A stretch of DNA of 64,000 nt from the NCBI RefSeq assembly GCF_041261445.1, contig NZ_JBGCCU010000009.1, positions 1 to 64,000 of the forward strand. Direction: 5' to 3'. This document shows positions 28,485-46,964 of the stretch, piece by piece. The DNA comes from Catenulispora sp. EB89 (GTDB taxonomy: Bacteria > Actinomycetota > Actinomycetes > Streptomycetales > Catenulisporaceae). Position 1 is the stretch's first letter. The number at the start of each line of letters is the position of its first letter. Below the pieces are notes generated by a model. It was not told the origin of the DNA and searched no databases. It saw only the letters and a program-made list of their open reading frames with translations. A program made the translations under genes and the position numbers.

Positions 28485-28489
28485 TACGC

Positions 28490-28527
28490 GAAGGAGGGGC
28501 GAGGCCACAAGGCCTCGCCCCTCCTTC
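28490..28527. terminator. bidirectional hairpin terminator
   Basis: A perfect 17-bp stem (GAAGGAGGGGCGAGGCC at 28490-28506 with its complement at 28511-28527) has an ACAA loop. It separates the rightward biosynthesis operon from the leftward uptake operon, six bases past one stop and 14 before the other. Confidence 0.9.
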
Positions 28528-28541
28528 ACCTCACCCCACCC

Positions 28542-32557: not shown

Positions 32558-32568
32558 GGTTGGAGAGT

Positions 32569-32587
32569 TTAGGTGAGGCTTACCTAA
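32569..32587. promoter_or_regulatory. iron box of uptake operon
   Basis: TTAGGTGAGGCTTACCTAA matches the IdeR/DmdR palindrome, differing from the 20931 box mainly at the centre. It ends 12 bases before the permease start codon, where bound regulator would cover the promoter. It places uptake under the same iron control as biosynthesis. Confidence 0.88.
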
Positions 32588-32616
32588 GTTCGTCAAACGG
32601 GGGCGGGAACCAGAGC

Positions 32617-32648
32617 GCCGGTCCCCTCACCGTGGTGAAGGAACCGGC
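32617..32648 (-). terminator. hairpin downstream of membrane protein gene
   Basis: Arms 32617-32631 and 32634-32648 pair at 13 of 15 positions around a two-base gap, with GCCGGT at one end and ACCGGC at the other. The hairpin lies 16 bases past the stop of the leftward gene at 32664. Confidence 0.5.
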
Positions 32649-32663
32649 GGCCGGCGGAGCGAA

Positions 32664-34574
32664 TCAGGAAGCGTCGAAGATCAGCGACGTCACGTTCCCC
32701 GCGTCACCCTTGTTCCAGATCGGGTACAGCGTCGTCGCGGTGCCCCGGTGCACGTGGCCCGAGGTGTCCTCGACCGTGAACACGACGTCCTCGCCGTAGG
32801 GGCTCACCTTGCGGTCGAGGATCTTGATCGTGTCGTCGCGCACCGTGCGGTCCAGCGACAGGGCGCGGCCGAAGGCCTCCATCCCGCTCAGGTCCTGGCC
32901 GAGGGAGTTCGGGTACAGCAGGTACGTGCCGTCCTTCTTGTCGCGCTGGCTCCAGCCCAGCTGGTCCGGCGCGAGGGGACGGAAGCGGAGCTGGTGGACC
33001 CAGTCGAAGGTGCCTTCCAGTCCTGCCTTGTCCACCGCCAGCGCGGCGGCCTGGTCGAACGCGGCGCGCAGCGTCACCTCGGCGCCGGGCTTGGCCAGGG
33101 GGCGGACCGCGTAGGACTGCGTGCCCTGCGCCGCGGCGACCGAGTCGGAGGCGGGGGCGTCGATCGACGAGCTCCAGGAGCCCGGGATCGATATGCCGAC
33201 CACGATCGCGAACACGACCCCGCCGGCGAGCAGCTGCGGGCGGTAGCGGTCGGCGCGCGGCAGGTTCAGGCCCAGGAAACGGCCGGGCGGGGTGGCTGCC
33301 AGGGCCGGGATCAGGCCGAACCGGGACCGTGCCGCGACCGGGGCCGGGGCCGGCGCCGTCGTCTCAGCAGCCGCCGGCTCCGTCGACGCCTTCGGCGCGC
33401 GGTCCCCGACCAGCAGCGACACCAGCTCGCCGGCGGCCACGGCGGCTGCCGGGAACATGATCATCTCGTAGCGCATGAGGGTGGAGTAGCCGACGCCCGC
33501 GGTGATGACGTAGGTCGCGCAGACCGCCCCGAAGAACACCGCCGCCGCATCGGACTTGAACCGGACCACCACCGTGATGCCGGCCGCGATCAACAGCGCG
33601 TAGAGCGTGCGGTCGCTGTGCCACATGTAGGTGCACGCTTCCTCGGTGACGATCTTCAGGAAGTGGACGAACTGCCTGATGACGCCCCACGTCGTGGTCT
33701 GCCCGCGGCTGAGCACCCCGCCGGTGTCGGTCTTGGCCAGCATCATGCTCACGACCTGCGTCGCCAGCGTCACCGACGCGGTGACCACCAGCGAACTCAG
33801 CCACCGGTTCCGCCACGTCCGCTCCCGCGCCAGCGCCCACAGCCACCCGGCGCCGGCCATCGCCGGCGCGAGCACGCCGACCTGGCGCGTCAGGGGGATG
33901 AACAGCGCCATGAGGCCGATCCACGCCAGATGGGAACGCGCCGCGCGCCGCCCGATCGGGAAGCTGGCCACCATCACGGCGACCAGCCCCATCGCCAGGG
34001 TGTCGGTGCCGGCCCAGGAGAAGCCCCAGATCGGGTTCACCAGGCTGAACGCCCCGGTCACGATCACCGCGACCGCCGGGCCGTACAGCCGCTGCAGCAC
34101 CCGGGCGACCGCGAACAGGAACAGCGCGTCGCCGAGCACCGGGACCATCAGCGAGCCGCCGGAGAGCCCCCAAAGCCGGACGAAAGGCAGCGACAGCACC
34201 GGATACAGGATCCGGGTCCGGGCCAGCTGCCACGTCGGGTCGTTGTTGGCGAAGTACCAGGGCGCGATGTGGGTGTTCGGCGACACCTGCTGCTCGAGCT
34301 TGATCGAGGACGGCAGCGAATGCCCCATGTCCCGCGCCATCATCGTCAGGTAGTAGCGGCTGTCCGGCGGATGGTTCCACCCCTGGCGGCTGGTGACGCT
34401 CATCGCCATCGAGGCGATGAACAACGGGAAGATGAGCACCAGCACGCCGACCCGCACCCCGAACAGGTCGCGATACATCAGCCGCGCCACGAAATCCTGG
34501 ACGGCGACCGGACGCAGCCGACGTCTCCACGACGTCGCCTCCTCGGTCTCGGCTATGAGGGTGTCTGCGCTCAT
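32664..34574 (-). CDS. polytopic membrane protein with extracellular C-terminal domain, unknown function
   Basis: This is a 636-aa protein. A first helix begins near VGVLVLIFPLFIASMAM, followed by a large loop with SRYYLTMMARDMGHSLP and roughly ten more helices to about residue 470. A soluble domain of about 160 residues then ends in LIFDAS. The long first loop with Asp/His and the helix count resemble GT-C glycosyltransferases of the actinobacterial envelope, but I see no decisive motif. ATG 34574 is taken as start, with AGGACGGGA upstream. Expressed leftward, it is separate from the iron genes. Confidence 0.65.
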   Translation of the reverse strand: MSADTLIAETEEATSWRRRLRPVAVQDFVARLMYRDLFGVRVGVLVLIFPLFIASMAMSVTSRQGWNHPPDSRYYLTMMARDMGHSLPSSIKLEQQVSPNTHIAPWYFANNDPTWQLARTRILYPVLSLPFVRLWGLSGGSLMVPVLGDALFLFAVARVLQRLYGPAVAVIVTGAFSLVNPIWGFSWAGTDTLAMGLVAVMVASFPIGRRAARSHLAWIGLMALFIPLTRQVGVLAPAMAGAGWLWALARERTWRNRWLSSLVVTASVTLATQVVSMMLAKTDTGGVLSRGQTTTWGVIRQFVHFLKIVTEEACTYMWHSDRTLYALLIAAGITVVVRFKSDAAAVFFGAVCATYVITAGVGYSTLMRYEMIMFPAAAVAAGELVSLLVGDRAPKASTEPAAAETTAPAPAPVAARSRFGLIPALAATPPGRFLGLNLPRADRYRPQLLAGGVVFAIVVGISIPGSWSSSIDAPASDSVAAAQGTQSYAVRPLAKPGAEVTLRAAFDQAAALAVDKAGLEGTFDWVHQLRFRPLAPDQLGWSQRDKKDGTYLLYPNSLGQDLSGMEAFGRALSLDRTVRDDTIKILDRKVSPYGEDVVFTVEDTSGHVHRGTATTLYPIWNKGDAGNVTSLIFDAS

Positions 34575-34961
34575 CCTGTCCCGTCCTGATTTGGCCAAGC
34601 CCCATGGCGCCCGCCGGGCAGCGGACGCGATACCGAAAGAGACTCACGAGCACCTCGATGAGGTTGCCAGGTATGGACAAGGGCCAGACCAGGTGAGCGA
34701 AGAGAGTGTACGGCCTCGCAGGGCCCGGGTTCTGTCTGCCGAGACAGGGCCGGTCGCGACGCCGCTGCCGCTGCCGCCGCCGAAGCCCATGCCGCTGACA
34801 CCGCCGCGCGCCGTCGCTGCTGCCGCCGCCGACACAGCTCCCACTGCCGGCGGCCGGCGCCGCAGGAGCGCAGGCCGACGCCGCCGCCGCTGGTGCCGAA
34901 GCCGCTGCCGCACGCCGCTGCCACCACCGCTGCCGCCCGCGGTCGGGTAGCGTCCTGCCGC
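34575..34961. other. gene-free stretch with CTG/CCG low-complexity sequence
   Basis: No convincing gene is present. From about 34760 the DNA is rich in short GCTGCCGCCGCCG-type runs, which keep several frames open on both strands. The promoters of the two divergent flanking genes must lie here, but no clear -35/-10 pair stands out. Confidence 0.5.
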
Positions 34962-35843
34962 GTGACGAATCTTCGAATCGGTGTCATGTACGACCGTGCC
35001 TGGCCCCCGGAGGGGCTTCCGGCCTTCGCCCGCGACGTCGAGGCGCTCGGCGCCGACGACCTGTGGGTCGTCGAAGACCTCGGATGGGGCGGCGGCATCT
35101 CGGCGGCGGCGCTGGCGCTGGCGGCGACCTCGCGGCTGCGGGTCGGCCTGGGTATCGCCCCGGCCCCGCTGCGGCATCCGGCGCTGCTGGCGATGGAGAC
35201 GGCGTTCCTGGCGCGCGTGCACCCCGGGCGGTTCGTCGCCGGCCTCGGGCACGGCGTCACCGAGTGGATGGCGTCGGTCGGCGCCACTCCCGGGTCGGCG
35301 CTGGCCCTGCTCGGGGAGTCGGCCGAAGTGCTGCGTGCGCTGTTGCGCGGCGAGCGCGTTCAGACGCAGGGCCGGGAGGTCCGGATCGACGATCTGCGGC
35401 TGGTCCACCCGCCCGAGGTGGTGCCGCCGGTCGTGCTCGGCGTCGTGCGGCCGCGGTCGCTGGAGCTCGCCGGGCGCGTCGCCGACGGCACGGTGATCGC
35501 CGAGGGCCTCGGTCCCGCCGATCTGCGGGCGGCGCTCGCGCTGATCCGGCAGGGCGGAGCCGCGCCGGACCATGAGCTGATCGTGTTCGCGTACGCGGCC
35601 GTGGCGGACGACGCCGGGCAGGCCGCGGAGGTGCTGCGGGACAAGGTCGAGGATCAGGCCGGATGGCTGGGACGCACCCCGGAGGAGATCTTCACCGTCA
35701 GCGGCACGCCTGCCGATGCCGTCGCCCGGATCGCGGAGCTTGAGGCGGCGGGTGCGACGAGCGTCGTGCTGCGGTTCAGTGGGGACGAGCCGGTGCGACA
35801 GCTCGGCGCGACACTCGCGGCGCTCGCGGACGTCAGGGGTTGA
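34962..35843 (+). CDS. LLM-class flavin/F420-dependent oxidoreductase
   Basis: This 293-aa luciferase-like protein starts NLRIGVMYDRAWPPEGLPAF, has DLWVVEDLGWGG and a central HPGRFVAGLGHGVTEWM strand, and later PVVLGVVRPRSLELAGRVAD, all typical of the LLM TIM barrel. It is shorter than the enzyme at 14048 and from another subgroup. GTG 34962 is chosen because residues upstream are low-complexity Ala/Thr and not family-like. Its last 11 bases overlap the end of the convergent carboxypeptidase gene. The substrate is unknown. Confidence 0.8.
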   Translation: MTNLRIGVMYDRAWPPEGLPAFARDVEALGADDLWVVEDLGWGGGISAAALALAATSRLRVGLGIAPAPLRHPALLAMETAFLARVHPGRFVAGLGHGVTEWMASVGATPGSALALLGESAEVLRALLRGERVQTQGREVRIDDLRLVHPPEVVPPVVLGVVRPRSLELAGRVADGTVIAEGLGPADLRAALALIRQGGAAPDHELIVFAYAAVADDAGQAAEVLRDKVEDQAGWLGRTPEEIFTVSGTPADAVARIAELEAAGATSVVLRFSGDEPVRQLGATLAALADVRG

Positions 35844-36966
35844 ACGAGGCAAGCGCCTGACCGACGCCCTGGATCAGGGTTCTGCTGGCGGCGAGCGCCG
35901 CGCGCAGGTCGTCGTTCGATGTGGAGCCCTGATGCTGGTCCAGCACGACGCCGAGCACCAGCCGGGTCGTGCCGGTGGCGTCGGGCTGGCGGGCGGCCCA
36001 CATCAGCGCGCCGCCGGCCGGGGTGCTGGAGCCGGTCTTCATGCCGATCACGCCGTTCTCGCCGAGCAGCGCGTTGGTGTTGACGAGCCGCGCACGCAGG
36101 CCGGGCACCGTGGCGGTGGGCATGGCGACGATGCGGCCGAAGGCGGGGTCGGCGATTGCCTTCTTGGCGAGCTTGAGCTGGTCGACCGCGGTGCTCCTGG
36201 TCGTCTCCTCGTAGCCGCTGGCGCCGGTGTAGGTGGTGTCGGTCATGCCGAGGCCGCGCGCGGTGTCGTTCATCTTGGCGACGAAGGCGTGCTCGGTGCC
36301 GGCGTCCCAGCGCGCGAGCAGGCGGGCGATGTTGTTGCCGGAGGGGATCAGCAGCATTTCGAGCAGGTCGTGCTCGCTGAAGGCCTGGCCCTTGTCGACG
36401 CGCACGGTCGACTGGTCCGGGTCGGACGCCTCGTTCGCGGCGGCCGCGTCGACGGTGATCATCGGGCCCTGATCGTCGCCGTCGAGGGGGTGGTCGGTGA
36501 GGATGACGAGCGCCGTCATCACCTTGGTGACGCTGGCTATCGGGACCGGCTTCTGCTCGCCCTTGGTGCCCAGGCTGCCGAGGCCTTCGACCTCGACGGT
36601 CGCCTGGCCCTGGGCCGGCCACGGCAGGGTGACGCCGGAGCCGAGGTCGACGGAGACCGGTGCCGGGGCGAGTGCGGGACCGTGGATGGATCCTGCGGCG
36701 GACCTCGGGGCGGGTTGGGTGCTGTGGTGTGCGGCGATGGCGAAGGCGGCGCCGGAGGCGGTGAGGGCGACCGTGATCGCGACGATCGGGATGACGGCGC
36801 GGTGGCGGCGTCGGGGGCGGGGCTGGGGCTGGGATTGGGGCTGGGGTTGGGGTTGGGGGACGTGCGGGCCAGGGCGGGGGCCGGGCTCGCTCTGTGGCGG
36901 CTCGGTCGGCTCCCGCATGTCGGGGACCTGCGGATCGGCGGTGTTTCGATCGTGAGTCGGGTTCAC
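35833..36966 (-). CDS. D-alanyl-D-alanine carboxypeptidase (penicillin-binding protein, S11)
   Basis: This 377-aa membrane-anchored enzyme has a cytoplasmic N-terminus rich in Pro-Gln repeats (PQPQPQPQ), one transmembrane helix (VIPIVAITVALTASGAAFAI), then the S11 domain. Active-site motifs are SVTK with the nucleophile serine, SGN (LIPSGNNIARL) and KTG (GMKTGSS). It trims the terminal D-Ala from peptidoglycan stem peptides. It lies 114 bases downstream of, and codirectional with, a two-component system of envelope-stress type, which hints at joint control. Confidence 0.88.
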   Translation of the reverse strand: MNPTHDRNTADPQVPDMREPTEPPQSEPGPRPGPHVPQPQPQPQSQPQPRPRRRHRAVIPIVAITVALTASGAAFAIAAHHSTQPAPRSAAGSIHGPALAPAPVSVDLGSGVTLPWPAQGQATVEVEGLGSLGTKGEQKPVPIASVTKVMTALVILTDHPLDGDDQGPMITVDAAAANEASDPDQSTVRVDKGQAFSEHDLLEMLLIPSGNNIARLLARWDAGTEHAFVAKMNDTARGLGMTDTTYTGASGYEETTRSTAVDQLKLAKKAIADPAFGRIVAMPTATVPGLRARLVNTNALLGENGVIGMKTGSSTPAGGALMWAARQPDATGTTRLVLGVVLDQHQGSTSNDDLRAALAASRTLIQGVGQALASFNP

Positions 36967-37080: not shown

Positions 37081-38292
37081 TCAGTCCGGTGTGCCCGGGA
37101 GCGTGAGCCGTGCGACCGCGCCGCCGTCGTACGCGTCGCCGAACTCCAGGCGCGCGCCGATCACCCGGGCCTGGCCGAGCGCGATGGTCAGGCCGAGGCC
37201 GTGGCCGCGACCACGTTCCGGCGCGCCGGTGCGGAAGCGGGACGGGCCCTGGGACAGGATGTCGGGCGGGAAGCCGGGGCCGTGGTCGCGGACGGTCAGC
37301 GTCGGGCCGTCGATGCCGAGCTCGATCGGAGCCCGGCCGTGGCGATGTGCGTTGACCAGGAGGTTGGTGAGGATCCGGTCCAGGCGGCGCGGGTCGGTGC
37401 GGACGACGAGATCACCGGTGACGGCCAGCAGCACCTCGAACCCGATGCCCGCGACCGTCTCGGCGACGAACTCGCGCAGCGGCACCGCGACGAAGTCCGC
37501 GGTCTCGACCCGCGCGTCGAGGCGGGAGACCTCCAGCAGGTTCTCGGTCAGGCTTCGCAGGGCCCGTACCCGGTCCCGGACCAGCTCGGTCGCCTCGCCG
37601 TCCGGCAGCAGCTCGGCCGCCGCGACCAGGCCCGCGAGCGGCGTGCGCAGCTCGTGGGCCACGTCGGCGGTGAAACGCTGCTCGGCGTGCAGACGCTGCT
37701 GGAGCGCGTCGGCCATGGAGTCGACAGCGGCGGAGATGTCGTGGACCTCGTCACCGGAGCCGCCGCGCGGGCCGATGCGGGCGTCGAGGTCGCCGGCGGC
37801 GATGCGGTGCGCGGTGCGGGCCGCGCGGCGCAGCCGTCGTCCGGCGAACTCGGCGCCGAAGGCCGCCAGCGGCACCAGGACGGAGACGGTGCCGACGGCG
37901 GCGTAGAAGGTGTGCCGGTCGAGCGCTTCGAGGTCGCGCTTCTCGGAACTCATGGGGTACTGCGCGGTCATGAGCCGACCGTTGAAGTACTGCGCCGCCC
38001 ACATCACCGGCCACGCGCTGTCGCTGTCGTCGTAGTACGTGACGGCCAGCTGCGTGCCCTGGGCCCGTGCCGCCAGCGGCGCCGGGACCGGGGGAGCCAG
38101 GCCCGGCTGGTCCGACTGCCCCGAGGAGATCGCCCGCGCCAGATCGTCGCGCGCGCTGACGCGGCCGTAGTAGAGCTGCCGGGACTTGGTGCTCTGGTGG
38201 ATGAGGAAGCCGATGGAGCCGGACGCGACCGTCACCGCCACGGCGGCCAGCACGGCCATCCGGACGCTCAGCGAACGCAGCGGGTTCCTCAT
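37081..38292 (-). CDS. sensor histidine kinase (CseC/AfsQ2-like)
   Basis: This is a 403-aa kinase. TM1 is near residues 11-33, a sensor loop of about 95 residues follows, and TM2 lies near 128-150. A HAMP domain (RIAAGDLDARIG) comes next, then the H-box ADVAHELRTPLAGL with the phosphorylated His, N-box NLLVNAHRHG, and G-boxes DHGPGFPPDIL and GHGLGLTIALGQA. The ATG overlaps the regulator stop by four bases. Its closest general type is the Streptomyces envelope-stress kinases; the signal is not known. Confidence 0.9.
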   Translation of the reverse strand: MRNPLRSLSVRMAVLAAVAVTVASGSIGFLIHQSTKSRQLYYGRVSARDDLARAISSGQSDQPGLAPPVPAPLAARAQGTQLAVTYYDDSDSAWPVMWAAQYFNGRLMTAQYPMSSEKRDLEALDRHTFYAAVGTVSVLVPLAAFGAEFAGRRLRRAARTAHRIAAGDLDARIGPRGGSGDEVHDISAAVDSMADALQQRLHAEQRFTADVAHELRTPLAGLVAAAELLPDGEATELVRDRVRALRSLTENLLEVSRLDARVETADFVAVPLREFVAETVAGIGFEVLLAVTGDLVVRTDPRRLDRILTNLLVNAHRHGRAPIELGIDGPTLTVRDHGPGFPPDILSQGPSRFRTGAPERGRGHGLGLTIALGQARVIGARLEFGDAYDGGAVARLTLPGTPD

Positions 38293-38984
38293 CGGCGCAG
38301 CTTGTAGCCGAAGCCACGGACGGTCTCGATGCGCTCCGCGCCGATCTTCGTCCGCAGCCGCGCCACACACAGGTCGACGACGCGCGAATCCCCGCCCTGC
38401 CACTTGTAGTCCCACACGTCGCGCAGCAGGCGGTGCCGCTCCAGCACGACGCCGGGGTGCGCGGCCAGCTCCAGCAGGAGGCGCAGCTCGGTCGGCGTCA
38501 GGGCGACGGGCTCGCCGGCGCGCGACACCTCCATGCCGTGGGGGTCGATGCGTATGTCGCCGAAGACGAGCTCGGAGGGGTGATCCGCGGAGGCGCCGGG
38601 CGTACCGGGCACATCCATGTCCACAGTGCTGCGCCGCATCACAGCCCGGATCCTGGCCACGAGAACCGACGTGTCCACCGGCTTGACGACGTAGTCGTCG
38701 GCCCCGGCCTCGAGCCCGCCGACCACGTCCAGCGAATCGCCCCGCGCGGACATCATGAGGATCGGCACCTGGCTGCTCTCCCGCACCCGCCGGCACAACC
38801 CGATGCCGTCCAGCCCCGGCAGCATCACATCCAGCAGCAGCAGATCCGGCACCGCCTCCCGGAACCGCTCCAGCCCCGCCAGCCCGTCCGCCGCCGTGGT
38901 CACGGCGAAGCCGTAGCGCTCCAGCGTCCGGCCCACGGCGATGCGGATCACCTCGTCGTCCTCGACCAGCAGCAGAGACGTCAC
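38289..38984 (-). CDS. OmpR-family response regulator (CseB/AfsQ1-like)
   Basis: This is a 231-aa regulator. The receiver has LLVEDDEVIR, the phospho-acceptor Asp in LLLLDVMLPGLDG, and Lys in DYVVKPVD. The winged helix contains LRDVWDYKWQGGDSRVVDLC, then the terminal ETVRGFGYKLRR shared by CseB and AfsQ1. It is cotranscribed with the kinase. The downstream D,D-carboxypeptidase is a plausible target or cotranscribed gene. Confidence 0.9.
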   Translation of the reverse strand: MTSLLLVEDDEVIRIAVGRTLERYGFAVTTAADGLAGLERFREAVPDLLLLDVMLPGLDGIGLCRRVRESSQVPILMMSARGDSLDVVGGLEAGADDYVVKPVDTSVLVARIRAVMRRSTVDMDVPGTPGASADHPSELVFGDIRIDPHGMEVSRAGEPVALTPTELRLLLELAAHPGVVLERHRLLRDVWDYKWQGGDSRVVDLCVARLRTKIGAERIETVRGFGYKLRR

Positions 38985-39052: not shown

Positions 39053-39997
39053 TCAGCAGGCCTGGACGTACCAGGCCGGGCCGAAGTCGTACGACGTGTT
39101 GACATCCCCGGGATTAGTTGCCGTCAAGACGTTGTGGTTCTGGTCCTTGATGCTCGCGACCGCGCCGCCGGTGTTCTGGTTGATATACGACCCGGGTCCG
39201 TTCCAGTTCTGCAGCGCCCAGTCGGCGCCGTTGTTCTGGCAGTTGTAGAACGAGAACACCGTCCCCGTGTAGTTCGGCCCGCTGTAGATGCAGAAGTGTC
39301 CGCTGTGGCAGTCCGAGCCGTCGCCGGCCGCGGTGTTCCAGCAGTCGGCGTTCGACGACGTGTCGCACTGCCCCATGCCGGAGACCGAGGGCCCGCCGCC
39401 GCCGCCTCCGCCGCCGTTCGGGGAGACGTAGCCGCTGATGTTCATGCCCCAGTACGAGCTGTAGCCGACGGTGCCGTCGTAGGTGTTGCTGTTGACCGAG
39501 GACGTCGAGGGGTCGTTCGTGACCTCGTTGCCGCCGATGCTCTGGATCGTCCCGTCGGAGTTCACAGCCGTGACCAGGGCGACGTGGTCGGCGTAGCCGG
39601 AGCCGTTGTAGTTGAACACCACAGCGTCGCCGACCTGCGGGGTCGAGTGCAGGCCCGAACCGTACTCGCCGAAGCTGCCGGCGGCCGGGGACAGGCCGGA
39701 CACGTCGTAGCCGGCCTGGGCCCAGACCCACATCGCGAAGTCGGCGCACCAGTTCTCCGGGGAGCCGCCGGCGCCGGTGCAGCTGGTGTAGTAGCCCTGG
39801 CCGCCGGCGCTGTTGGTGTCGCAGGCGTGGTCGCCGATGTTGGCGTTCGCGATCGAGACGATGTCGCCGGTCGAGGCCGACGCCGGGCTCGTGGTCAGGG
39901 CGAACGAGGACAGCAGCAGCACCAGGGCCGCCAGGAGTTTGAGGAGTTTGCTCGATGGTGCGGCGGACGTCGTGGGGAACGCTGTGGTGAGTCTCAC
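39053..39997 (-). CDS. secreted CHAP-domain amidase with I36-type C-terminal domain
   Basis: This is a 314-aa exported protein with a signal peptide to about TSPASAS. The CHAP-type domain carries the catalytic cysteine in NWCADFAMWVWAQAG and the histidine in YADHVALVTAV. A Gly-rich linker follows, and then a Cys-rich domain (FCIYSGPNYTGTVFSFYNC) like peptidase-inhibitor I36/beta-gamma-crystallin folds. It probably cleaves peptidoglycan cross-bridges or stems, with the C-terminal domain for binding. GTG 39997 has AAAAGGAAG upstream; earlier in-frame codons lack a site. Its promoter carries the triple SARP-type repeat. Confidence 0.78.
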   Translation of the reverse strand: MRLTTAFPTTSAAPSSKLLKLLAALVLLLSSFALTTSPASASTGDIVSIANANIGDHACDTNSAGGQGYYTSCTGAGGSPENWCADFAMWVWAQAGYDVSGLSPAAGSFGEYGSGLHSTPQVGDAVVFNYNGSGYADHVALVTAVNSDGTIQSIGGNEVTNDPSTSSVNSNTYDGTVGYSSYWGMNISGYVSPNGGGGGGGGPSVSGMGQCDTSSNADCWNTAAGDGSDCHSGHFCIYSGPNYTGTVFSFYNCQNNGADWALQNWNGPGSYINQNTGGAVASIKDQNHNVLTATNPGDVNTSYDFGPAWYVQAC

Positions 39998-40055
39998 GGC
40001 TGTCTTCCTTTTGAGGGGGGGCTGAGGACATTGTGATCCGGCTGACACGGTGAGT

Positions 40056-40100
40056 AGTCTTGCGACAGCACTTCACAAAGTACGCACACTGATTGCACAG
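40056..40100 (-). promoter_or_regulatory. SARP-type triple heptamer box, copy 1
   Basis: Heptamers TTCACAA (40072), CGCACAC (40083) and TGCACAG (40094) recur at an exact 11-bp period with 4-bp spacers. Read toward the CHAP gene, an AAGACT hexamer (40056-40061) starts 10 bases after the last heptamer and can serve as -10. This geometry is that of SARP activator sites. The box also lies upstream of the regulator gene itself, allowing autoregulation. Confidence 0.75.
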
Positions 40101-40159
40101 CCGGGATCGCCCCTGCTGCCGACGACGTCATGATCTTCCGATCCGCGGGGGATGGACCG

Positions 40160-43100
40160 ATGGATCCCGATATCCGGCTGCTCGGCGGGCTGACCGTCGA
40201 CCACGGCGGCGAACCGCTCCACCTGGACGGCCAACGCCGGCTGTGCCTGCTGGCGGTCCTGGTGCTCAACCACGGCCGCACGGTCTCCCGCACCGACCTG
40301 GCCGAGTGGGCCTGGCCGTCCACGCCCCCGGACACCGTCGACCGGCAGATCGCCAACTATGTCTCAGCCCTGCGAAAGGCCCTGGAGCCGGTCGAGGACC
40401 GGATCCGGCTGGTCGCCCGCCGCCCCGGCTACACCGCGCTGCTCGCCCCCGAACTGCTCGACACCGAGCGCTTCGGGACACTGCTGGGCCGGGCCCGCGA
40501 GGCCCGAGCCGGGCAGGAGCACCAGCTCGCGGCGGAGCGGCTGCGCCAGGCGCTGGGCCTGTGGCGCGGCCGTCCGCTCGACGGGCTCGACACGCCCTAC
40601 CTGCGCAACCGCGCCGCCGGGCTGGAGCGTCAGCGGCGGGACGCCGCGATGCTGCTGGCCGAGATCGAGCTGGAGACCGGACGGCCTGCCGAGGCCGCCG
40701 CGGTGCTGCGGGACGTGGCGGCGGCCCGGCCCGACGACGAAGCGGTCGCCGCGACCCTCATCCGGGCCCTGACACAAGCCGGGCAGACCGACGAGGCGGC
40801 CCAGACCGCGACCCGCGCCGACCGTTCGCTGCGCTCTCAGGGCCGCACGCCGACCCCCGCGCTGCGCCAGGCGCACAGCGACGCGCTCGCCGGCCGCGTC
40901 CCGGTACGGCCCGCCGACCCGCGGCACCAGCTGCCCGCCGACACCGGTGCGTTCTCCGGCCGGGTCGAGGAACTGTTCGAGATCGCCCGCCTCGCCAAGC
41001 GCGCCGAGGCGGCCGAGACCCCGGGCGCGCCGGTGATCTGCACGATCGACGGGATGGGCGGGATCGGCAAGACCGCGCTGGCCGTGCACGCCGCGCACCT
41101 GCTGGCCGACGGCTTCCCGGACGGACAGCTGTTCCTGGAGTTCCACGCGCATTCGATCGCCGTGCCGACGCGCACCGCCTTCGACGTCCTGGGCAGCGCC
41201 CTGGCCGCGCTCGGCGCCCCGCCGCAGACGGTTCCGAACGAGCTCGACGCCCGCGCGGCCAAGTACCGGGCCGTGCTGGCCGGTACCAGGACTCTGATCG
41301 TGCTGGACAACGTCGAAGACGAGAACCAGGTCCGGCCTCTGATTCCGGCCGGTCCCGGCTGTCTGGTGCTGATCACCAGCCGTCGGCGGCTGAAGGCGCT
41401 GGACGACGCCGAACCGCTGGGCTTGGACGTGCTGCCGGTCGACGACGCCGTCGCGCTGTTCCGTGCCACGGCGGGAGCGGGACGCACGCCGGCCGACGAC
41501 GGGCCGCTGACGGAGGTCGTCCAGATGTGCGGGCGGCTGCCGCTGGCGCTGCGGATCGCGGCCGCGTTGCTGCGGTATCGGCGCAGTTGGCAGATCGAGC
41601 ACGTCATCAGGGAGCTGAGTGAGGGCGCCGGGGACCTGGACGTCTTCGACGACGGTCAGCGCAGCCTGGCGTCGGTTTTCGAGCTGTCGTACCGGAATCT
41701 GACGCCTGCGCAGGAGACGGTGCTGCGCCGGATAGCGCAGGTTCCGGGGCGCGATGTCGATGTTCTCGCCTGCGCGTCGTTGCTCGACGTCGATCTGCGG
41801 TCTGCGCGGCGGTTGCTGGGCGATCTGACGGATCGCAGCCTGCTGATCGAGCTCGTGCCGGGGCGGTTCCGGATGCACGATCTGATGCGCAGCTATGTGC
41901 TGTCTCGAACCGAGACGGAGGAAGAGGTCGAGGGCGAGAGCGAGGCCGCCCTGGACCGTTTGTTCGACTACTACCGGCACGCCGCCCACCGGGCCGACCG
42001 TCAGATCAGGACCCTGCCGACGCTGTACGCCGCGCCGACGGGGGCTCATGTGCCTCGCCACCAACCCCTGATCGAGGATCGCGAAGCCGCGCAGGCCTGG
42101 ATGGCCGGTGAGATCGAGAATCTGATCGCCGCGGCCCGTCACGGTGGCCACACGATCGCCCTGTCGGCCGCCCTGGCCACCCACTTGTACTCGCACGGCC
42201 CATGGACCGTGGCCCTCGAACTGCACACCGCCGCCGTCGACCTCGCGCGCCGTGGCACCGACGCCCCGGCCCTGGCCTGCGCCCTCACCGACCTCGGCAG
42301 GGCGCGGCGGCTGTGCGGCGACTATCCGGGTGCCGTCGAGGCGCACCGGGAGGCGCTGCACCTGTATCAGGGTTCGGACAACACCATCGCCGAAGCCTTG
42401 GTCCTGACCGAACTGAGCCGGGCCTGGCAACTCGTCGGCGACCACCTCGCCGCCGGGGACGCCGGGGCCCAGGCGCTGGAGCTCTCCCGACGGCTGGACG
42501 ATCTCCCGGGTCAGGCCAGGGCGCTCAACGAGATCGGGCGGGTCCGCCGGCTCGCGGGGGATTACGTCGCGGCAGCCGATGCCTGCACCCAGGCCTACCG
42601 GCTCTACAAGCGCCTGAACGACACGCCAGGCCAGGCCGAGGTCCTGACCCAGCTCGGCGCGATCCGGCACCTGACCTGCGACTACCACGGCGCGACCGCC
42701 GCGTTCACCGAGGCCCTGGAACTGTGGCGGCGGCTGGACGGCGTGCTCGGGCAAGCCAATGCCCTGACATCGCTGGGCATCGTGCGGCGCCGGACCGGGG
42801 ACCTGCGCGGCGCGCGCGACAGCATCACGCGCGCACTGCGCATCTACCGCCGCTTGGACAGCCCGCTCGGGCAAGCGGGCGCCCTGACCGAGCTGGGCCG
42901 CCTGTGCTGCCTGGCCGACGACCACCTCGGCGCCGACGACGTCCTGACCCAGGCGCTGGACCTGTACCGACTCCTCGGCCACGCGACCGCCCAGGCCACG
43001 GTCACGGCCGAACTGGGCACTGTGCGCCGCCTGGTCGGCGACCACGCGGGCGCCGTGGCCGCGACCGCCGAGGCGCTGCGGATCCTGCGGGACTCCGGCG

Positions 43101-43444
43101 GCCGGGGGGAGGAGGCGTGGGCGCTTAATCAGTATGCTGCCGCACTGAACGCCGCGGGCCGTGTCGAGGAGGCGCTGGCGGTCTACGGCCGGGCGCTGGT
43201 CATGACACGGGAAGTCGGGCAGACCGACGATCAGGCGACGGCCTTCGAGGGCGTCGGCGACATCCTGCTGCGGCACGGCCGGACGGACGAGGGCGGCGCG
43301 AACCTTCGTCGAGCGCTGAGTATCTATCTGCGGCTGGGGCTCCCGGCGGACGCCCGGCGCGTCCGGAACCGCTATGGCGCGGCCGTCGTCCCGGACGAAG
43401 AGCCGGTCGAGGTCTTCCTGGAGTACGAGATCGTCGTGCGTTGA
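40160..43444 (+). CDS. AfsR-like SARP regulator (DBD-BTAD-NB-ARC-TPR)
   Basis: This is a 1094-aa pathway-type activator. An OmpR-like winged helix occupies about residues 1-95 (LLGGLTVDHGGEPLHLDGQR start), and the BTAD domain extends to about 245. The NB-ARC ATPase has P-loop GMGGIGKTALAVH near 298, Walker B TLIVLDNVED and sensor LITSRRRL. At least eight TPR units from about 680 to the end share the pattern LGQAxALTxLGxxRR. ATG 40160 has GGGGGATGG upstream. AfsR-type proteins bind 11-bp-period direct repeats and recruit polymerase; three such promoters lie within 7 kb. The ATP/TPR part probably senses a ligand or partner. Confidence 0.88.
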   Translation: MDPDIRLLGGLTVDHGGEPLHLDGQRRLCLLAVLVLNHGRTVSRTDLAEWAWPSTPPDTVDRQIANYVSALRKALEPVEDRIRLVARRPGYTALLAPELLDTERFGTLLGRAREARAGQEHQLAAERLRQALGLWRGRPLDGLDTPYLRNRAAGLERQRRDAAMLLAEIELETGRPAEAAAVLRDVAAARPDDEAVAATLIRALTQAGQTDEAAQTATRADRSLRSQGRTPTPALRQAHSDALAGRVPVRPADPRHQLPADTGAFSGRVEELFEIARLAKRAEAAETPGAPVICTIDGMGGIGKTALAVHAAHLLADGFPDGQLFLEFHAHSIAVPTRTAFDVLGSALAALGAPPQTVPNELDARAAKYRAVLAGTRTLIVLDNVEDENQVRPLIPAGPGCLVLITSRRRLKALDDAEPLGLDVLPVDDAVALFRATAGAGRTPADDGPLTEVVQMCGRLPLALRIAAALLRYRRSWQIEHVIRELSEGAGDLDVFDDGQRSLASVFELSYRNLTPAQETVLRRIAQVPGRDVDVLACASLLDVDLRSARRLLGDLTDRSLLIELVPGRFRMHDLMRSYVLSRTETEEEVEGESEAALDRLFDYYRHAAHRADRQIRTLPTLYAAPTGAHVPRHQPLIEDREAAQAWMAGEIENLIAAARHGGHTIALSAALATHLYSHGPWTVALELHTAAVDLARRGTDAPALACALTDLGRARRLCGDYPGAVEAHREALHLYQGSDNTIAEALVLTELSRAWQLVGDHLAAGDAGAQALELSRRLDDLPGQARALNEIGRVRRLAGDYVAAADACTQAYRLYKRLNDTPGQAEVLTQLGAIRHLTCDYHGATAAFTEALELWRRLDGVLGQANALTSLGIVRRRTGDLRGARDSITRALRIYRRLDSPLGQAGALTELGRLCCLADDHLGADDVLTQALDLYRLLGHATAQATVTAELGTVRRLVGDHAGAVAATAEALRILRDSGGRGEEAWALNQYAAALNAAGRVEEALAVYGRALVMTREVGQTDDQATAFEGVGDILLRHGRTDEGGANLRRALSIYLRLGLPADARRVRNRYGAAVVPDEEPVEVFLEYEIVVR

Positions 43445-43468
43445 TCACTCGGTGCGGCTGGTTACTCG

Positions 43469-43513
43469 GTGTGCGATCGGTGTGCTCGGATTGTGAACAT
43501 CAGGACCCAGACT
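43469..43513 (+). promoter_or_regulatory. SARP-type triple heptamer box, copy 2
   Basis: Read toward the protease gene, GTGTGCG (43469), GTGTGCT (43480) and TTGTGAA (43491) lie 11 bp apart. CAGACT at 43508-43513 starts 10 bases after the last heptamer. The ATG follows at 43522, so the transcript would be nearly leaderless. Sequence and orientation toward the gene equal those of copies 1 and 3. Confidence 0.75.
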
Positions 43514-43521
43514 CCCGGTTC

Positions 43522-44679
43522 ATGAGACATCTTCCGCACACCGCCTCCGCACGCCTGGCGGTCGTCGCGATCGCCGCCGCGACGGTCGGCGTCGTCGCTC
43601 CGGCCGCGCATGCCGACACCACCGCCGTGGAGCTGCCGCCGGTGGTCGCCGCCGGCCCGAACTTCACCCAGGATCTGCGCGCCGAGGTGAACTACTGGAC
43701 ATTGGCCAAGATGGCCTCGGTCGGATTGAACGACGACGGCCAGGACGCCACCGAGCCGCAAGGCGGCTGGGACGACCTCAGCACGCCGTGGTCGGTCGAC
43801 GGCCAGGGCCTGATCACCCGGACCGCCGGGAAGCTGTTCTTCGTGCAGAAGGACGTGGACAGCGGGGCGCTCATCCCCGACGCGTGTTCGGCGGACGTCG
43901 TGACCAGCGCGAATCAGAGTGTTGTGGTGACCGCTGCGCACTGCGTGGCCGTCCACACGCCGTTCGACCTCGGCGCGCCCTACGGCATGGGCAACACCCT
44001 GGTCACCAACATGGTCTTCATCCCCGGCTACAACGGCGCGGCCCTGCCGCGCGGCACCACCAGCACGGCGTTGCCCGGCACGGACATCGCGCCCTACGGC
44101 GTGTGGGGCGCCACCCGGGAGTGGATCACCAACACCTGGAGCGGGAGCGCTGACTTCGCCTTGGGCCACGACATGGCCGCGGTGCTGGTCGCCAACCCGG
44201 ATGACCCCCGGCCGATCGCGCAGGTCACCGGGGCCCAGCAGATCGGGTTCAACCAGCCGCAGAACCAGTACGAGTACATGTTCGGCTACCCGCAGACCAA
44301 CGAGCGCAACTGGTATTGGTCGGACAACAACGATGGCACCCGGGCCAGCAACGGCGAGCCGCAGAACCTGTGGCGTGCGTTCGACGGCCGCACGCTGACC
44401 GTCACCCGCGGCCAGTCCCAGCCCGACGCCGTCTACGCCAACGACGTCCTGAACACCGCGCAGGCGCCGGGGTGCAGCGGCGGGCCGTGGATGCAGAACT
44501 TCGATCCCTCGACCGGGAGCGGGGTGCAGACCGGCGTCAACTCACGGTATCAGAACCCGAATCAGGGTCCGAGTCCGCTGGGTTGGCTGAACTGGCTGCA
44601 GGGTCCGCAGATGGAGGGCACGCACTTCGGCGACGAGGAGCAGGCGGTCTGGCAGGCGGCGCAGAGCGCTTCGTTGTGA
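43522..44679 (+). CDS. secreted trypsin-like serine protease
   Basis: This 385-aa exported chymotrypsin-fold protease has a signal peptide ending PAAHA. The catalytic triad is His in VVTAAHCVAV, Asp in GHDMAAVLV and Ser in PGCSGGPWMQ, all present. A pro-region of about 90 residues precedes the domain. It lies 77 bases after the AfsR-like regulator gene on the same strand, but has its own SARP-type promoter box and a perfect terminator, so it is separately expressed. The substrate is unknown. Confidence 0.88.
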   Translation: MRHLPHTASARLAVVAIAAATVGVVAPAAHADTTAVELPPVVAAGPNFTQDLRAEVNYWTLAKMASVGLNDDGQDATEPQGGWDDLSTPWSVDGQGLITRTAGKLFFVQKDVDSGALIPDACSADVVTSANQSVVVTAAHCVAVHTPFDLGAPYGMGNTLVTNMVFIPGYNGAALPRGTTSTALPGTDIAPYGVWGATREWITNTWSGSADFALGHDMAAVLVANPDDPRPIAQVTGAQQIGFNQPQNQYEYMFGYPQTNERNWYWSDNNDGTRASNGEPQNLWRAFDGRTLTVTRGQSQPDAVYANDVLNTAQAPGCSGGPWMQNFDPSTGSGVQTGVNSRYQNPNQGPSPLGWLNWLQGPQMEGTHFGDEEQAVWQAAQSASL

Positions 44680-44703
44680 CGCCTGTGGTGAGTCGTGGGT
44701 GAG

Positions 44704-44740
44704 CCGCGTCGCGATCCCCGGAGCGGGGATCGCGACGCGG
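44704..44740. terminator. bidirectional hairpin terminator
   Basis: CCGCGTCGCGATCCCCG at 44704-44720 pairs perfectly over 17 bp with its complement at 44724-44740, around a GAG loop. It lies between the convergent protease and ligase genes and serves both. Confidence 0.9.
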
Positions 44741-44763
44741 TGTCCAGCGGTGTCCAGCGCTGT

Positions 44764-45597
44764 TCAGCTGGTCCGGGCGCGGGCGAAGTCCTTGCGCTTG
44801 ATCTTCGCGCGGCGGCCGTCGGGGTGGTGGAAGACGACGCCTTCGGCGAGGTGCCCGGGGGCGTAGCGGGACTCCAGGGACGCCAGCCAGTCGTGCAGTT
44901 CGGCGTAGGTGCGCGGGGCGTTCTCGTAGTCCGGGACGGTCAGGTTGAACGGGACGCAGATGTGCTCTTCCAGCCCCAGCGGGTTGCCCTGGATGCGGGG
45001 GCCGAGGGCTTCGACGCTGTGCTCGCCGTCCGGCCAGGCCGTGACGAGGGTGTTGGCGGCGGCCTCGCGCAGCCACTTGTCCTCGGCGCCGTGCTCGTCG
45101 GTGTCGACGTACCAGCCGTCGACGATGCCGGCGGCCTTCTGCGCCTTCGACGGGTTGCGGCGCTTCTCCACCCGCACGATCGTGCCGGAGCGGACTGTCA
45201 GCCGGGCGTTGGTGCCGTCCAGCTTCTCCGTCGCCCGGCCGGCGCCGGCGAACACCCACTCGCAGTCCGCGCGCGGCTTGTCGACCACGTGGAATCGGTC
45301 GTCGCGCTCGAAAATCGTCGGGATCTTCTCCATGACTGTGGCCCCCTTGCGGACGTGCGTCAGCAACTCCTCGGCGTCCACGACTCCGTGGACGAGTCCG
45401 GCCGCCAGCGCGCGCACCAGGTCGGCGACCGGGACGCCGGCGTCGGCCGCGACCGCCTTGAGCGCGTCCTTCTCCTCCGGCGCGACCCAGGCGACCAGCC
45501 GCGACCACCCCGGCGGCGGGCTCCACACGGCCAGCCGGCCGGGGTCCTTGCGCGGGCGGCCGCGGCGCGGCGCGGGTTCGGGTGACGGTTCGGACAT
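44764..45597 (-). CDS. predicted RNA ligase (DUF5565/RLIG1-like nucleotidyltransferase) with N-terminal DNA-binding-like region
   Basis: This is a 277-aa protein. Residues 1-95 contain an AT-hook-like RRGRPRKDPG and a helical APEEKDALKAVAADAG stretch resembling a ribbon-helix-helix unit. From about 95 on it shows nucleotidyltransferase motifs: EKLDGTNARL (motif I, with the lysine that would be adenylated), VRVEKRR, HICVPFNL, EGVVFHHPDG (motif IV) and KIKRKDF (motif V). The set is that of Rnl-type RNA ligases, closest in my recollection to DUF5565, the family of vertebrate RLIG1. The proposed role is nick or end repair of RNA. Its promoter overlaps a perfect palindrome, so autoregulation by the N-terminal part is plausible. 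Confidence 0.65.
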   Translation of the reverse strand: MSEPSPEPAPRRGRPRKDPGRLAVWSPPPGWSRLVAWVAPEEKDALKAVAADAGVPVADLVRALAAGLVHGVVDAEELLTHVRKGATVMEKIPTIFERDDRFHVVDKPRADCEWVFAGAGRATEKLDGTNARLTVRSGTIVRVEKRRNPSKAQKAAGIVDGWYVDTDEHGAEDKWLREAAANTLVTAWPDGEHSVEALGPRIQGNPLGLEEHICVPFNLTVPDYENAPRTYAELHDWLASLESRYAPGHLAEGVVFHHPDGRRAKIKRKDFARARTS

Positions 45598-45603
45598 GGG
45601 GCG

Positions 45604-45641
45604 ATCATGGCTCTGATTTTCTGTTGTGTCAACAGAAAATC
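45604..45641 (-). promoter_or_regulatory. promoter with overlapping 12-bp palindromic operator
   Basis: GATTTTCTGTTG (45615-45626) and CAACAGAAAATC (45630-45641) are exact complements around TGT. On the minus strand a TTGACA -35 spans the centre (45627-45632), followed after 17 bp by CATGAT (45604-45609) as -10. Transcription would start at or next to the ligase ATG at 45597. A dimeric repressor bound here would block polymerase. It could also fold as an RNA hairpin ending the upstream gene. Confidence 0.7.
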
Positions 45642-45654
45642 GAGAAGCCCCGGC

Positions 45655-46866
45655 TCACGGGTTGATGCCGTCGAACTGCAACACCCGGTACGGCTGTGGC
45701 GTGTTGCCAGGCCACTGCGACACGATGAGCGTCAGCGAGTTCGCACTCGCGCTCCCGGGGTGGATGTAGCCGCCGTACAGGTTCGCGACCTGCGGCTTGC
45801 CCCAGTAGCTGGGGTAGCGGTAGTCGCCGACGATCTGCGGCTGCGGGTCCGACCAGGGACCCTCGGGGCGCGGTGAGGTGCGGGTGTAGATCGCGTAGTT
45901 GCCGACGTCGAAGTAGCTCATGCAGTAGGTGCCGTTGATGTTCTTCACCGAGAACTCGCCGAGGTTGCTGCCCGCCGGGAACAACGGGGTCGGGTAGGCG
46001 TCGGAGGTCCACGTCCAGTTCCCGTTGACGTTGGCCCAGTTCTGCTGGTTCTGCCAGGCACCGTTGCGGAAGTCGTCCTGGGTGAACCGGAACAGCTGGA
46101 TCAGGCCCTGGTCCGCGCTGTTGTTGTGGCTGCCGTTCCAGCGCTTGGAGTAGACGTAGAGGTAGCCGTCGGCGTCGATGCCGGCGAAGGACCACATCCC
46201 GTAGAGCGATTCGTTGCCGCCGGTGCGGTCGCCGGGCCAGTGGTAGCTGTAGTCGCTCCAAGTGACGCCGTAGTCGTCGGAGTAGGCGACGCCGGAGCAC
46301 ACCGAGCCGTCGTATCCCGCTGGCGGGCCCCAGGTGAAGACCGACGTGTACTGGATGTAGGTACGGCCGCCGAACTCGATGCAGTCATTCGGGATGCGGC
46401 TCTGCTCGACGTCGCCGAGGCCGTTGTTCGCACCGTGCGTGTAGTCGAACGTCTGGCGGGCCTGCCCGGCGGTCGGCATCGCCCACGTGAAGGAGATCGG
46501 GTTCGCCCCGGTGTTGTCGAACGTCGCCTGGTTCAGCATCACCGGCGAGCCGATGTACGTGTTGGGGTCGCCCTGGCTGGGCCCGCTGTAGGAGTCGCCG
46601 AAGACGTACCCCCAGGTGCCGTCGTGCTGCCGGAGGTAGGGGATGCCCAGGTCCCCGCAGCCGAGCCCCTGCTGGCTGGCCGAGTCGCCCCCGGCGTTCT
46701 GGCACAGCGGCGCCCCGGTCTGGCCGACGCCGTTGGTGGCGTACGCCGGTGCGGCGGCGCCCACACCGGCGCCGAGGCCGATCCCCGCGCCCAGCGTCAG
46801 CCCGGTCCCGGCCTTGAGGAGTGTGCGCCGACTGAAGTCGCGGCCGCTCAGTGATGGTTCAGACAT
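45655..46866 (-). CDS. Tat-exported DUF4185 protein
   Basis: This is a 403-aa protein with a twin-arginine signal (FSRRTLLKAGTG) followed by a Gly/Ala-rich hydrophobic segment. The mature part is a DUF4185-like five-bladed beta-propeller, with repeated aromatic blades such as TWGYVFGDSYSG, YGVTWSDYSYHWPGD and YGMWSFAGIDADGYLYVY. The family is distantly related to glycosidase propellers, and polysaccharide binding or hydrolysis is likely. ATG 46866 has AAGAGGG upstream. A SARP-type triple repeat lies about 70 bases before the start. Confidence 0.75.
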   Translation of the reverse strand: MSEPSLSGRDFSRRTLLKAGTGLTLGAGIGLGAGVGAAAPAYATNGVGQTGAPLCQNAGGDSASQQGLGCGDLGIPYLRQHDGTWGYVFGDSYSGPSQGDPNTYIGSPVMLNQATFDNTGANPISFTWAMPTAGQARQTFDYTHGANNGLGDVEQSRIPNDCIEFGGRTYIQYTSVFTWGPPAGYDGSVCSGVAYSDDYGVTWSDYSYHWPGDRTGGNESLYGMWSFAGIDADGYLYVYSKRWNGSHNNSADQGLIQLFRFTQDDFRNGAWQNQQNWANVNGNWTWTSDAYPTPLFPAGSNLGEFSVKNINGTYCMSYFDVGNYAIYTRTSPRPEGPWSDPQPQIVGDYRYPSYWGKPQVANLYGGYIHPGSASANSLTLIVSQWPGNTPQPYRVLQFDGINP

Positions 46867-46919
46867 TCTCAACCCTCTTGTTCATCGGGGTAAGGATGCG
46901 ACGACTGTCACAGGCGGGA

Positions 46920-46964
46920 TTCTTGGGTCGGCGCTTCACAATCCGCGCACAGTGATCGCACAAT
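46920..46964 (-). promoter_or_regulatory. SARP-type triple heptamer box, copy 3
   Basis: Heptamers TTCACAA (46936), CGCACAG (46947) and CGCACAA (46958) have an exact 11-bp period. On the minus strand AAGAAA (46920-46925) starts 10 bases after the last heptamer. The whole block closely matches copy 1 over more than 30 bp. It drives the DUF4185 gene. Confidence 0.75.

What the first reader, a model, noticed from the sequence alone, without database searches (positions are those of the whole stretch)
39053..46964. Local SARP regulon: one AfsR-like activator and three identical triple-heptamer promoters
Seen: TTCACAA, (C/A)GCACA(C/G) and (C/T)GCACA(A/C/G) heptamers with an exact 11-bp period at 40072-40100, 43469-43497 and 46936-46964. 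Each copy faces its target the same way, with a similar A-rich hexamer 10 bases downstream. Known: SARP proteins bind 11-bp direct repeats just upstream of -10. Inference: the regulator at 40160 turns on three exported proteins (CHAP amidase, trypsin-like protease, DUF4185 propeller). This would be a secreted lytic or feeding programme rather than an antibiotic cluster, which is unusual for a SARP.
Basis: partly seen in the sequence, partly recalled or inferred. Interest (0 to 1): 0.85.

Follow-up and report, generated by a model that had tools for sequence, protein, structure and literature searches.

The report
SARP switch for secreted wall-degrading enzymes
A regulator of the kind that normally turns on antibiotic genes in soil actinobacteria appears here to switch on a small set of secreted enzymes that digest bacterial cell walls and proteins, one of them predicted to cut the D-arabinan of mycobacterial-type walls, through a DNA code conserved across related species.

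Summary
The triple-repeat site TGTGC-N6-TGTGC-N5-TTGTGAA occurs exactly three times in the 11.9-Mb genome, all in this window. Each copy lies 10 bp upstream of a -10-like hexamer and faces an exported-protein gene. A fourth copy (2 mismatches) precedes an exported esterase elsewhere.

Comparison supports this SARP as the binder. Of ten genus (Catenulispora) genomes, the five with an ortholog of its DNA-binding domain carry 4-8 sites; the five without carry none with the -10, except one relic. None of 381 other genomes of the order matches. A pattern scan of 84,980 species found one convincing further case, Streptantibioticus parmotrematis: a 58%-identical SARP divergent from a DUF4185 gene bearing the site.

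Targets are mostly secreted hydrolases: DUF4185, C40-like, CHAP, S12-like, esterase, A4 and trypsin-like proteases. DUF4185 is a GH183 endo-D-arabinanase by fold and catalytic residues.

Best reading: an AfsR-type SARP driving a secreted wall-lytic programme. Binding is inferred, not measured; whether it digests other bacteria or the organism's own wall is open.

The parts
40160..43444 (+). AfsR-type large SARP: OmpR-like DNA-binding domain, BTAD, NB-ARC, TPR (1094 aa; ATG with GGGGGA upstream)
   Evidence: Pfam Trans_reg_C, BTAD, NB-ARC, TPR; match to AfsR 8k60 over residues 8-721, E 2.5e-81
40072..40100 (-). Triple-heptamer site 1, facing the CHAP gene
   Evidence: 0 mismatches
40056..40061 (-). 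-10-like hexamer AAGACT, 10 bp after site 1
39053..39997 (-). Target 1: exported CHAP + peptidase-inhibitor I36 protein (GTG start, about 52-nt leader)
   Evidence: Pfam CHAP and Inhibitor_I36; start and signal peptide by eye
43469..43497 (+). Triple-heptamer site 2, facing the trypsin-like gene
   Evidence: 0 mismatches
43508..43513 (+). -10-like hexamer CAGACT; predicted start of transcription about 43520, 2 nt before the ATG (near-leaderless)
43522..44679 (+). Target 2: exported trypsin-like (S1) serine protease, 385 aa
   Evidence: PDB match 3cp7, E 6.8e-7; AAHC and GCSGGP motifs read in the sequence (motif meaning recalled); no Pfam or NCBIfam hit at E 0.001
46935..46963 (-). Triple-heptamer site 3, facing the DUF4185 gene
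   Evidence: 0 mismatches
46919..46924 (-). -10-like hexamer AAGAAT, 10 bp after site 3
45655..46866 (-). Target 3: DUF4185/GH183 endo-D-arabinanase with an RR-type export signal; catalytic D72, D91, E304

Best explanation
The gene at 40160-43444 is an AfsR-type SARP. Its DNA-binding domains line up on three repeats, 11 bp (about one helical turn) apart and ending in TTGTGAA, with the middle repeat over the -35 position, and recruit RNA polymerase to a weak -10 (nAnnnT) ten bases after the last one. This turns on a small set of secreted hydrolases: CHAP hydrolase, trypsin-like protease and GH183 endo-D-arabinanase in the window, and a PF00756 esterase elsewhere in the genome; in sister species also a C40-like peptidase with a PLL propeller, an S12-like hydrolase, an A4 protease and a GH43-like enzyme. 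The NB-ARC/TPR half is the sensor or gate. The secreted set breaks down bacterial walls, most likely including arabinan-bearing (mycobacterial-type) ones. Shown: sites, spacing, conservation, co-occurrence of site and regulator, enzyme families. Inferred: binding, activation, the sensing role, the biological target.
For: Three exact sites in 11.9 Mb, all here. In the ten genus genomes, 30 of 32 hits (up to 2 mismatches; reversed control 4) have nAnnnT exactly 10 bp downstream, although the search pattern did not include it; of the 21 Streptomyces-family hits of the same search 18 had loci, and 0 of these 18 has it. 23 sites in 6 of 10 genus genomes, 0 of 381 other genomes of the order. SARP orthologs 77-80% in G002, G008, G009, and the DNA-binding domain (86%) in G007; these and G000 are the genomes with 4-8 sites. 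S. parmotrematis: SARP (58%), site and DUF4185 (64%) divergent. The residues matching AfsR T88/R92 are N and A/G in all these SARPs, and D and K/E in the two G001 SARPs compared. The spacing equals that of the AfsR afs box as I derive it from PMC10936776. DUF4185 orthologs in 6 Streptomyces-family genomes have neither a SARP within about 1.5 kb nor a site. Target orthologs keep the site when unlinked from the SARP (G007:C2, G009:C11, G009:C17).
Against: No binding or expression data. Each genus genome gives 22-104 SARP/NB-ARC/TPR matches, so another SARP could bind. The N..A/G helix is not unique: 24 of 120 database homologs have it (17 N/A, 7 N/G), and the G009:C46 SARP has it with no site in the 18 kb fetched around it. 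In G009 and G007 the ortholog itself is not next to a site. Only ten genus genomes are held, and they are related. Two of 29 examined targets (an alpha/beta hydrolase in G002 and G008) are not exported by eye, and their sites are variant. The export heuristic was loose: 22 of 46 other window genes also passed, against 25 of 29 targets. C. acidiphila whole cells contain much arabinose (PMC3035231), so the arabinanase could act on the organism's own wall.
Confidence: 0.8

Rival explanations
1. The same SARP regulon, but its role is remodelling or programmed lysis of the organism's own wall during development, not attack on or feeding from other bacteria.
For: C. acidiphila whole-cell sugars include large amounts of arabinose (PMC3035231, passages); mycobacteria themselves carry GH183 enzymes (PMC10115798, passages); AfsR is described as a signal integrator (PMC10972967, passages).
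Against: DUF4185 orthologs are found in 4 of 10 genus genomes (G000, G002, G008, G009), a truncated relic in G001, and none in the other five, although wall chemistry is expected to be shared (inference). Phage records with a DUF4185 match, many annotated lysin A or endolysin, infect Gordonia and Rhodococcus (30 of 32 by name) and Mycobacterium (1), genera with D-arabinan walls (PMC10509167, passages).
Confidence: 0.35
2. The sites belong to another OmpR-type regulator: the adjacent two-component response regulator (38289-38984) or PhoP (11-bp PHO-box repeats).
For: Such regulators have OmpR-like DNA-binding domains; 11-bp repeats with TTCAC cores resemble PHO boxes (recalled); the response regulator and its kinase are the next genes upstream of the CHAP gene.
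Against: The response regulator ortholog (89% or more) is in G002, G007 and G008, on contigs other than those of the sites, but not in G009, which has 5 sites (best there 54%). PhoP is expected (recalled, not searched) in the 381 other genomes of the order, none of which has the pattern.
Confidence: 0.06
3. Another SARP of the same genome, not this one, binds the sites.
For: Genus genomes hold many SARP-like proteins; in G009 the DUF4185 gene lies next to a different SARP (L056); in G007 a 47% paralog sits among the sites.
Against: The L056 SARP has an AfsR-like T..R helix; the G007 paralog shares the N..A helix, so it could be a second reader of the same code; site presence follows this ortholog group.
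Confidence: 0.1
4. The three copies are recent local duplicates of one promoter without regulatory meaning.
For: All three lie within 7 kb.
Against: Spacers and leaders differ between copies while the heptamers and the -10 spacing are kept; the same site occurs at unlinked loci in other species and in another family.
Confidence: 0.01

Closest known systems
AfsR of Streptomyces coelicolor (large SARP)
   Same: Domain order DBD-BTAD-NB-ARC-TPR; 11-bp direct repeats overlapping the -35; the heptamer-to-(-10) distance matches the afs box as I derive it
   Different: Three repeats instead of two; heptamer TTGTGAA/TGTGC instead of the afs box; recognition residues T88/R92 replaced by N and A; targets are secreted hydrolases
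Triple-heptamer SARP sites (DnrI, ActII-ORF4, PimR; review PMC10972967, passages)
   Same: Three heptameric direct repeats; 4-nt spacers as in PimR; classical 11-bp period
   Different: Those sites serve antibiotic clusters; the target set and heptamer sequence differ here
GH183/DUF4185 endo-D-arabinanases (EndoMA1, Rv3707c, phage GMA6 lysin)
   Same: Propeller fold of EndoMA1 and its three essential acids
   Different: Here under a SARP-type promoter, with peptidoglycan and protein hydrolases as co-targets; no GH172 or GH116 among the target families found
EmbR of mycobacteria (recalled, except its structural likeness to AfsR)
   Same: SARP-type fold; linked to arabinan
   Different: EmbR (recalled) controls arabinan synthesis and has an FHA domain; this one would control arabinan breakdown

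Membership tests
SARP (AfsR/DnrI/RedD) | N-terminal OmpR-type DNA-binding domain followed by BTAD | tested here: met
   Trans_reg_C 4.2e-9 and BTAD 2.6e-19
SARP (AfsR/DnrI/RedD) | Large-SARP sensor half (NB-ARC and TPR) | tested here: met
   NB-ARC 3.9e-12, TPR_12 1.2e-37; AfsR match over residues 8-721
SARP (AfsR/DnrI/RedD) | Conserved DNA contacts of AfsR (W74, P79, R94, K95) | tested here: met
   W, PP and LRK are at the aligned places; the base-reading T88 is N here, a departure from the conserved set named in the paper
SARP (AfsR/DnrI/RedD) | Binds its sites and activates transcription | not testable with these tools
   No binding or expression data
SARP (AfsR/DnrI/RedD) | Controls an antibiotic or secondary-metabolite cluster (usual, not defining) | tested here: not met
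   All 4 sites found in the own genome precede exported-protein genes
SARP-type target promoter | Direct repeats at 11-bp period | tested here: met
   Exact 11-bp period in 3 of 3 window sites
SARP-type target promoter | Last repeat at a fixed short distance from a -10 element | tested here: met
   10 bp from heptamer end to nAnnnT in 30 of 30 distinct sites kept, after 2 of 32 genus hits without it were set aside; derived afsS spacing is the same
GH183 (DUF4185) | PF13810 domain above cut-off | tested here: met
   198.7 bits against a cut-off of 39.5
GH183 (DUF4185) | Catalytic Asp, Asp, Glu (EndoMA1 D33, D51, E243) | tested here: met
   Window D72, D91, E304, invariant in 19 sequences including the GMA6 lysin; EndoMA1 residues from passages of PMC10509167; D51N visible as 8ic1 against 8hhv; I place D91 on D51 by the FGD motif, four residues from where HMMER's alignment puts it
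GH183 (DUF4185) | Fold of solved GH183 enzymes | tested here: met
GH183 (DUF4185) | Endo-D-arabinanase activity | not testable with these tools
   No assay
PhoP PHO box | Site distribution follows phoP | tested here: inconclusive
   Pattern absent in 381 other genomes of the order, but the presence of phoP was not searched

The most novel reading that the evidence does not exclude
A SARP with a STAND-type (NB-ARC/TPR) sensor runs a dedicated attack or feeding programme of some Catenulispora (and, by SARP-DUF4185 linkage, Streptantibioticus and probably Kitasatospora nipponensis) against arabinogalactan-walled actinobacteria. An endo-D-arabinanase opens the arabinan, C40-like, CHAP and S12-like enzymes cut peptidoglycan, and proteases and an esterase finish the job. 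The NB-ARC/TPR half would sense prey or its wall fragments.
Probability: 0.3. Interest if true: 0.85.

Novelty: new variant of a known kind. Interest (0 to 1): 0.68.

Why it matters
SARPs are known mainly as antibiotic-cluster activators; here one appears to own a conserved regulon of secreted lytic enzymes with its own DNA code. If right, the site becomes a search key for the regulon of a large SARP in a genus with dozens of SARP-like proteins, and it ties D-arabinan degradation (the wall polymer of mycobacteria) to a controllable switch in a soil actinomycete. It also gives a test of what large SARPs sense: in one species (G007) the ortholog has lost the NB-ARC/TPR half in frame while the DNA-binding half and five sites remain.

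Tried and rejected
Chance or local duplication: rejected by shuffles, whole-genome and order-wide scans. The adjacent response regulator as binder: its ortholog is absent from G009, which has sites. Wider regulon in the own genome: a half-site plus -10 pattern gave the same four promoters and one 1-mismatch hit, control 0. Wider use of the site upstream of DUF4185: six Streptomyces-family orthologs have no site. Of the nine stretches, four (Phenylobacterium, Nostoc, a proteobacterial MAG, Zooshikella) were taken as chance from taxonomy; their site letters were printed but their genes were not examined. The S. parmotrematis genome has one exact site; its other 10 hits have 2-3 mismatches, control 3. 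Orthologs of the CHAP gene were not searched in the genus. Rfam, tRNA, repeat and promoter tools were not used. (export heuristic) was too permissive to serve as a control. Direct phmmer of DUF4185 against PDB gave nothing at E 0.01; the profile did. NCBIfam named none of the trypsin-like, C40-like, PLL, 238-aa or DUF4185 proteins. Literature searches on SARPs with secreted, lytic or arabinan targets showed no paper describing such a regulon in the listings; only open-licence PMC papers are held, and I read listings, passages and two sections.
Full report
OBSERVATION. The three sites exist as described, with one coordinate off by one. The pattern TGTGC-N6-TGTGC-N5-TTGTGAA has 3 exact matches in the window against 0.03 expected, and in the whole 11.9-Mb genome there are exactly those 3, plus one at 2 mismatches (G000:C12:211960) with the same layout. 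A shorter pattern (last two repeats plus the -10 positions) finds the same four and one 1-mismatch hit, with no hit for the reversed control. The copies are alike, not identical.

REGULATOR. The gene at 40160-43444 carries an OmpR-type DNA-binding domain, BTAD, NB-ARC and TPRs and matches AfsR (8k60, residues 8-721, E 2.5e-81). The start at 40160 is preferred over the longer ORF from 40130 because GGGGGA lies just upstream. Aligned to AfsR, the two base-reading residues T88 and R92 (PMC10936776, section 7 read) are N and A here, which fits a different heptamer.

PROMOTER GEOMETRY. In AfsR's target the 22-bp afs box spans -40 to -19 (PMC10936776, passages). Taking the -10 as -12 to -7, which I derive from the scaffold described there, the first seven bases of the last repeat end 10 bp before the -10. 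The window sites show the same 10 bp. Predicted transcription starts are 40049, 43520 and 46912; the protease mRNA would be nearly leaderless, with 2 nt before the ATG.

CONSERVATION. Among ten genomes of the genus (G000-G009) there are 32 hits with up to 2 mismatches: G000 4, G001 2, G002 8, G003 1, G007 5, G008 7, G009 5, and none in G004-G006; the reversed pattern gives 4. In 30 of the 32 the bases 10 bp downstream fit nAnnnT, which was not part of that search; the two that do not (one in G001, the one in G003) were set aside as chance. Of 21 hits in the Streptomyces-like family of the same search, 18 had loci, and 0 of these 18 fits; nor do the 2 hits of the same-family genome G012. With the -10 positions included and 1 mismatch allowed, 391 genomes of the order gave 23 sites in 6 genomes, all of this genus, and no reversed-control hit in the table.

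WHO BINDS. The SARP ortholog (77-80% identity) is in G002, G008 and G009, and its DNA-binding/BTAD part (87% over 197 residues) in G007; the best SARP matches of G001 and G003-G006 are 33-49% identical over the matched part. So the five genomes with the ortholog hold 4-8 sites, and the five without hold none that has the -10, apart from one in G001 (G003 and G006 are only 81% and 77% complete). The ortholog is linked to sites in G000, G002 and G008; in G009 and G007 it is on another contig and no site (up to 3 mismatches) was seen beside it. G001, Catenulispora rubra by matching contig length, is close to the window species in flanking genes (about 90-97% identity) but at this locus a DUF4185 N-terminal remnant, with its site, is fused to a homolog of the gene at 35833-36966; the SARP, the protease and the response regulator have no ortholog in G001. 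The response regulator beside the SARP does not follow the sites: its ortholog is absent from G009.

INDEPENDENT CASE. An exact-pattern scan of 84,980 species' contigs gave nine stretches: four in Catenulispora pinistramenti and C. pinisilvae, and one in Streptantibioticus parmotrematis, of another family, where the site lies between a divergent SARP (58% identical; DNA-binding domain 69%, N..G helix) and a DUF4185 gene (64%) and faces the latter. That genome has no other exact site. The other four stretches were taken as chance; their genes were not examined. In Kitasatospora nipponensis a SARP (50%, helix VDRQIANYVAGLRR), a DUF4185 protein and a C40-like/PLL protein are on contigs of the same length, and the DUF4185 and C40-like proteins carry tags _00760 and _00780; I could not fetch that DNA. 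As a negative control, 6 Streptomyces-family genomes of the 293 genomes have a DUF4185 ortholog (65-69%), with no SARP within about 1.5 kb and no site. The N..A/G helix alone is no proof: 24 of 120 listed homologs have it.

TARGETS. Leaving out the G001 relic, there are 29 sites in the genus and 1 in S. parmotrematis. Their first downstream genes are: DUF4185 (5), PF00756 esterase (5), trypsin-like (3), C40-like with PLL propeller (3), Peptidase A4 (3), exported 170-238-aa unknown (3), S12-like beta-lactamase-fold (2), CHAP-I36 (1), GH43-like with weak tectonin match (1), PLL-propeller protein (1), pectate-lyase-like (1), alpha/beta hydrolase (2). At least one member of each group was searched; the rest were assigned by their likeness to it. 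'C40' is a source's name for a near-identical protein and rests otherwise on a below-cut-off NlpC/P60 match of a relative. 29 were translated (one DUF4185 gene is broken by a contig end); by eye 27 of 29 begin with a signal peptide or an RR export signal, the two alpha/beta hydrolases do not. The heuristic gave 25 of 29, against 22 of 46 other window genes, and is too loose to count as proof. At the promoter beside the SARP, window and G002/G008 share the site, the -10 and about 25 nt of leader but carry different genes (CHAP here, S12-like hydrolase there): the promoter stayed and the gene differs. In G007 a GH25 lysozyme lies downstream of the C40-like gene.

MECHANISM. Most likely the SARP, gated by its NB-ARC/TPR half, binds three repeats on one face of the DNA, the middle one over the -35, and recruits RNA polymerase to a weak -10. 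In G007 the ortholog has lost residues about 198-1022 in frame, leaving DNA-binding domain, BTAD and the C-terminal tail, so it may be ungated there; a 47% paralog with the same N..A helix is linked to the sites. What the programme is for is less certain: the enzyme set looks like wall lysis, the arabinanase points to mycobacterial-type walls, but Catenulispora acidiphila whole cells contain much arabinose (PMC3035231, passages).

VERDICT. Observation confirmed, interpretation supported and sharpened. The parts (SARP, 11-bp repeats, GH183) are each known; a conserved SARP regulon of secreted lytic enzymes is, to judge from the listings, not described in the open literature held here.

Noticed in passing
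   Followed up: partly
L100 (G007:C7), 8496-9287: SARP ortholog with an in-frame loss of the NB-ARC/TPR part: DNA-binding domain, BTAD and C-terminal tail remain, a natural 'small SARP'.
   Followed up: partly
window 39998-40100 and L041:11056-11152, L046:15758-15854: Same promoter and start of leader, different downstream gene (CHAP against S12-like hydrolase) in sister species.
   Followed up: partly
L044:3017-3044, L049:2997-3024, L050:3011-3038: Variant sites with a shared GACAGT hexamer upstream of cytosolic alpha/beta hydrolases and a pectate-lyase-like protein; possibly the code of a sister SARP.
   Followed up: no
L134:3843-4223; L131:3770-4159; L132:2920-4050: Streptomyces-family DUF4185 genes without a nearby SARP neighbour LGFP-repeat, NlpC/P60-like (below cut-off) and S12-like genes in 3 of the 6 genomes: part of the enzyme set travels together.
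   Followed up: partly
L067:1733-3040: Type III polyketide-synthase-like gene beside the SARP in S. parmotrematis.
   Followed up: no
window 22212-34598: By eye, a siderophore region: two IucA/IucC-like genes, a transporter, a PLP decarboxylase, an iron-binding lipoprotein and ABC genes. No family search was run.
   Followed up: no
window 44764-45597: Gene between the protease and DUF4185 with weak RNA-ligase and NikA-like hits (below Pfam cut-offs), conserved at 92% in G002 and G008.
   Followed up: no
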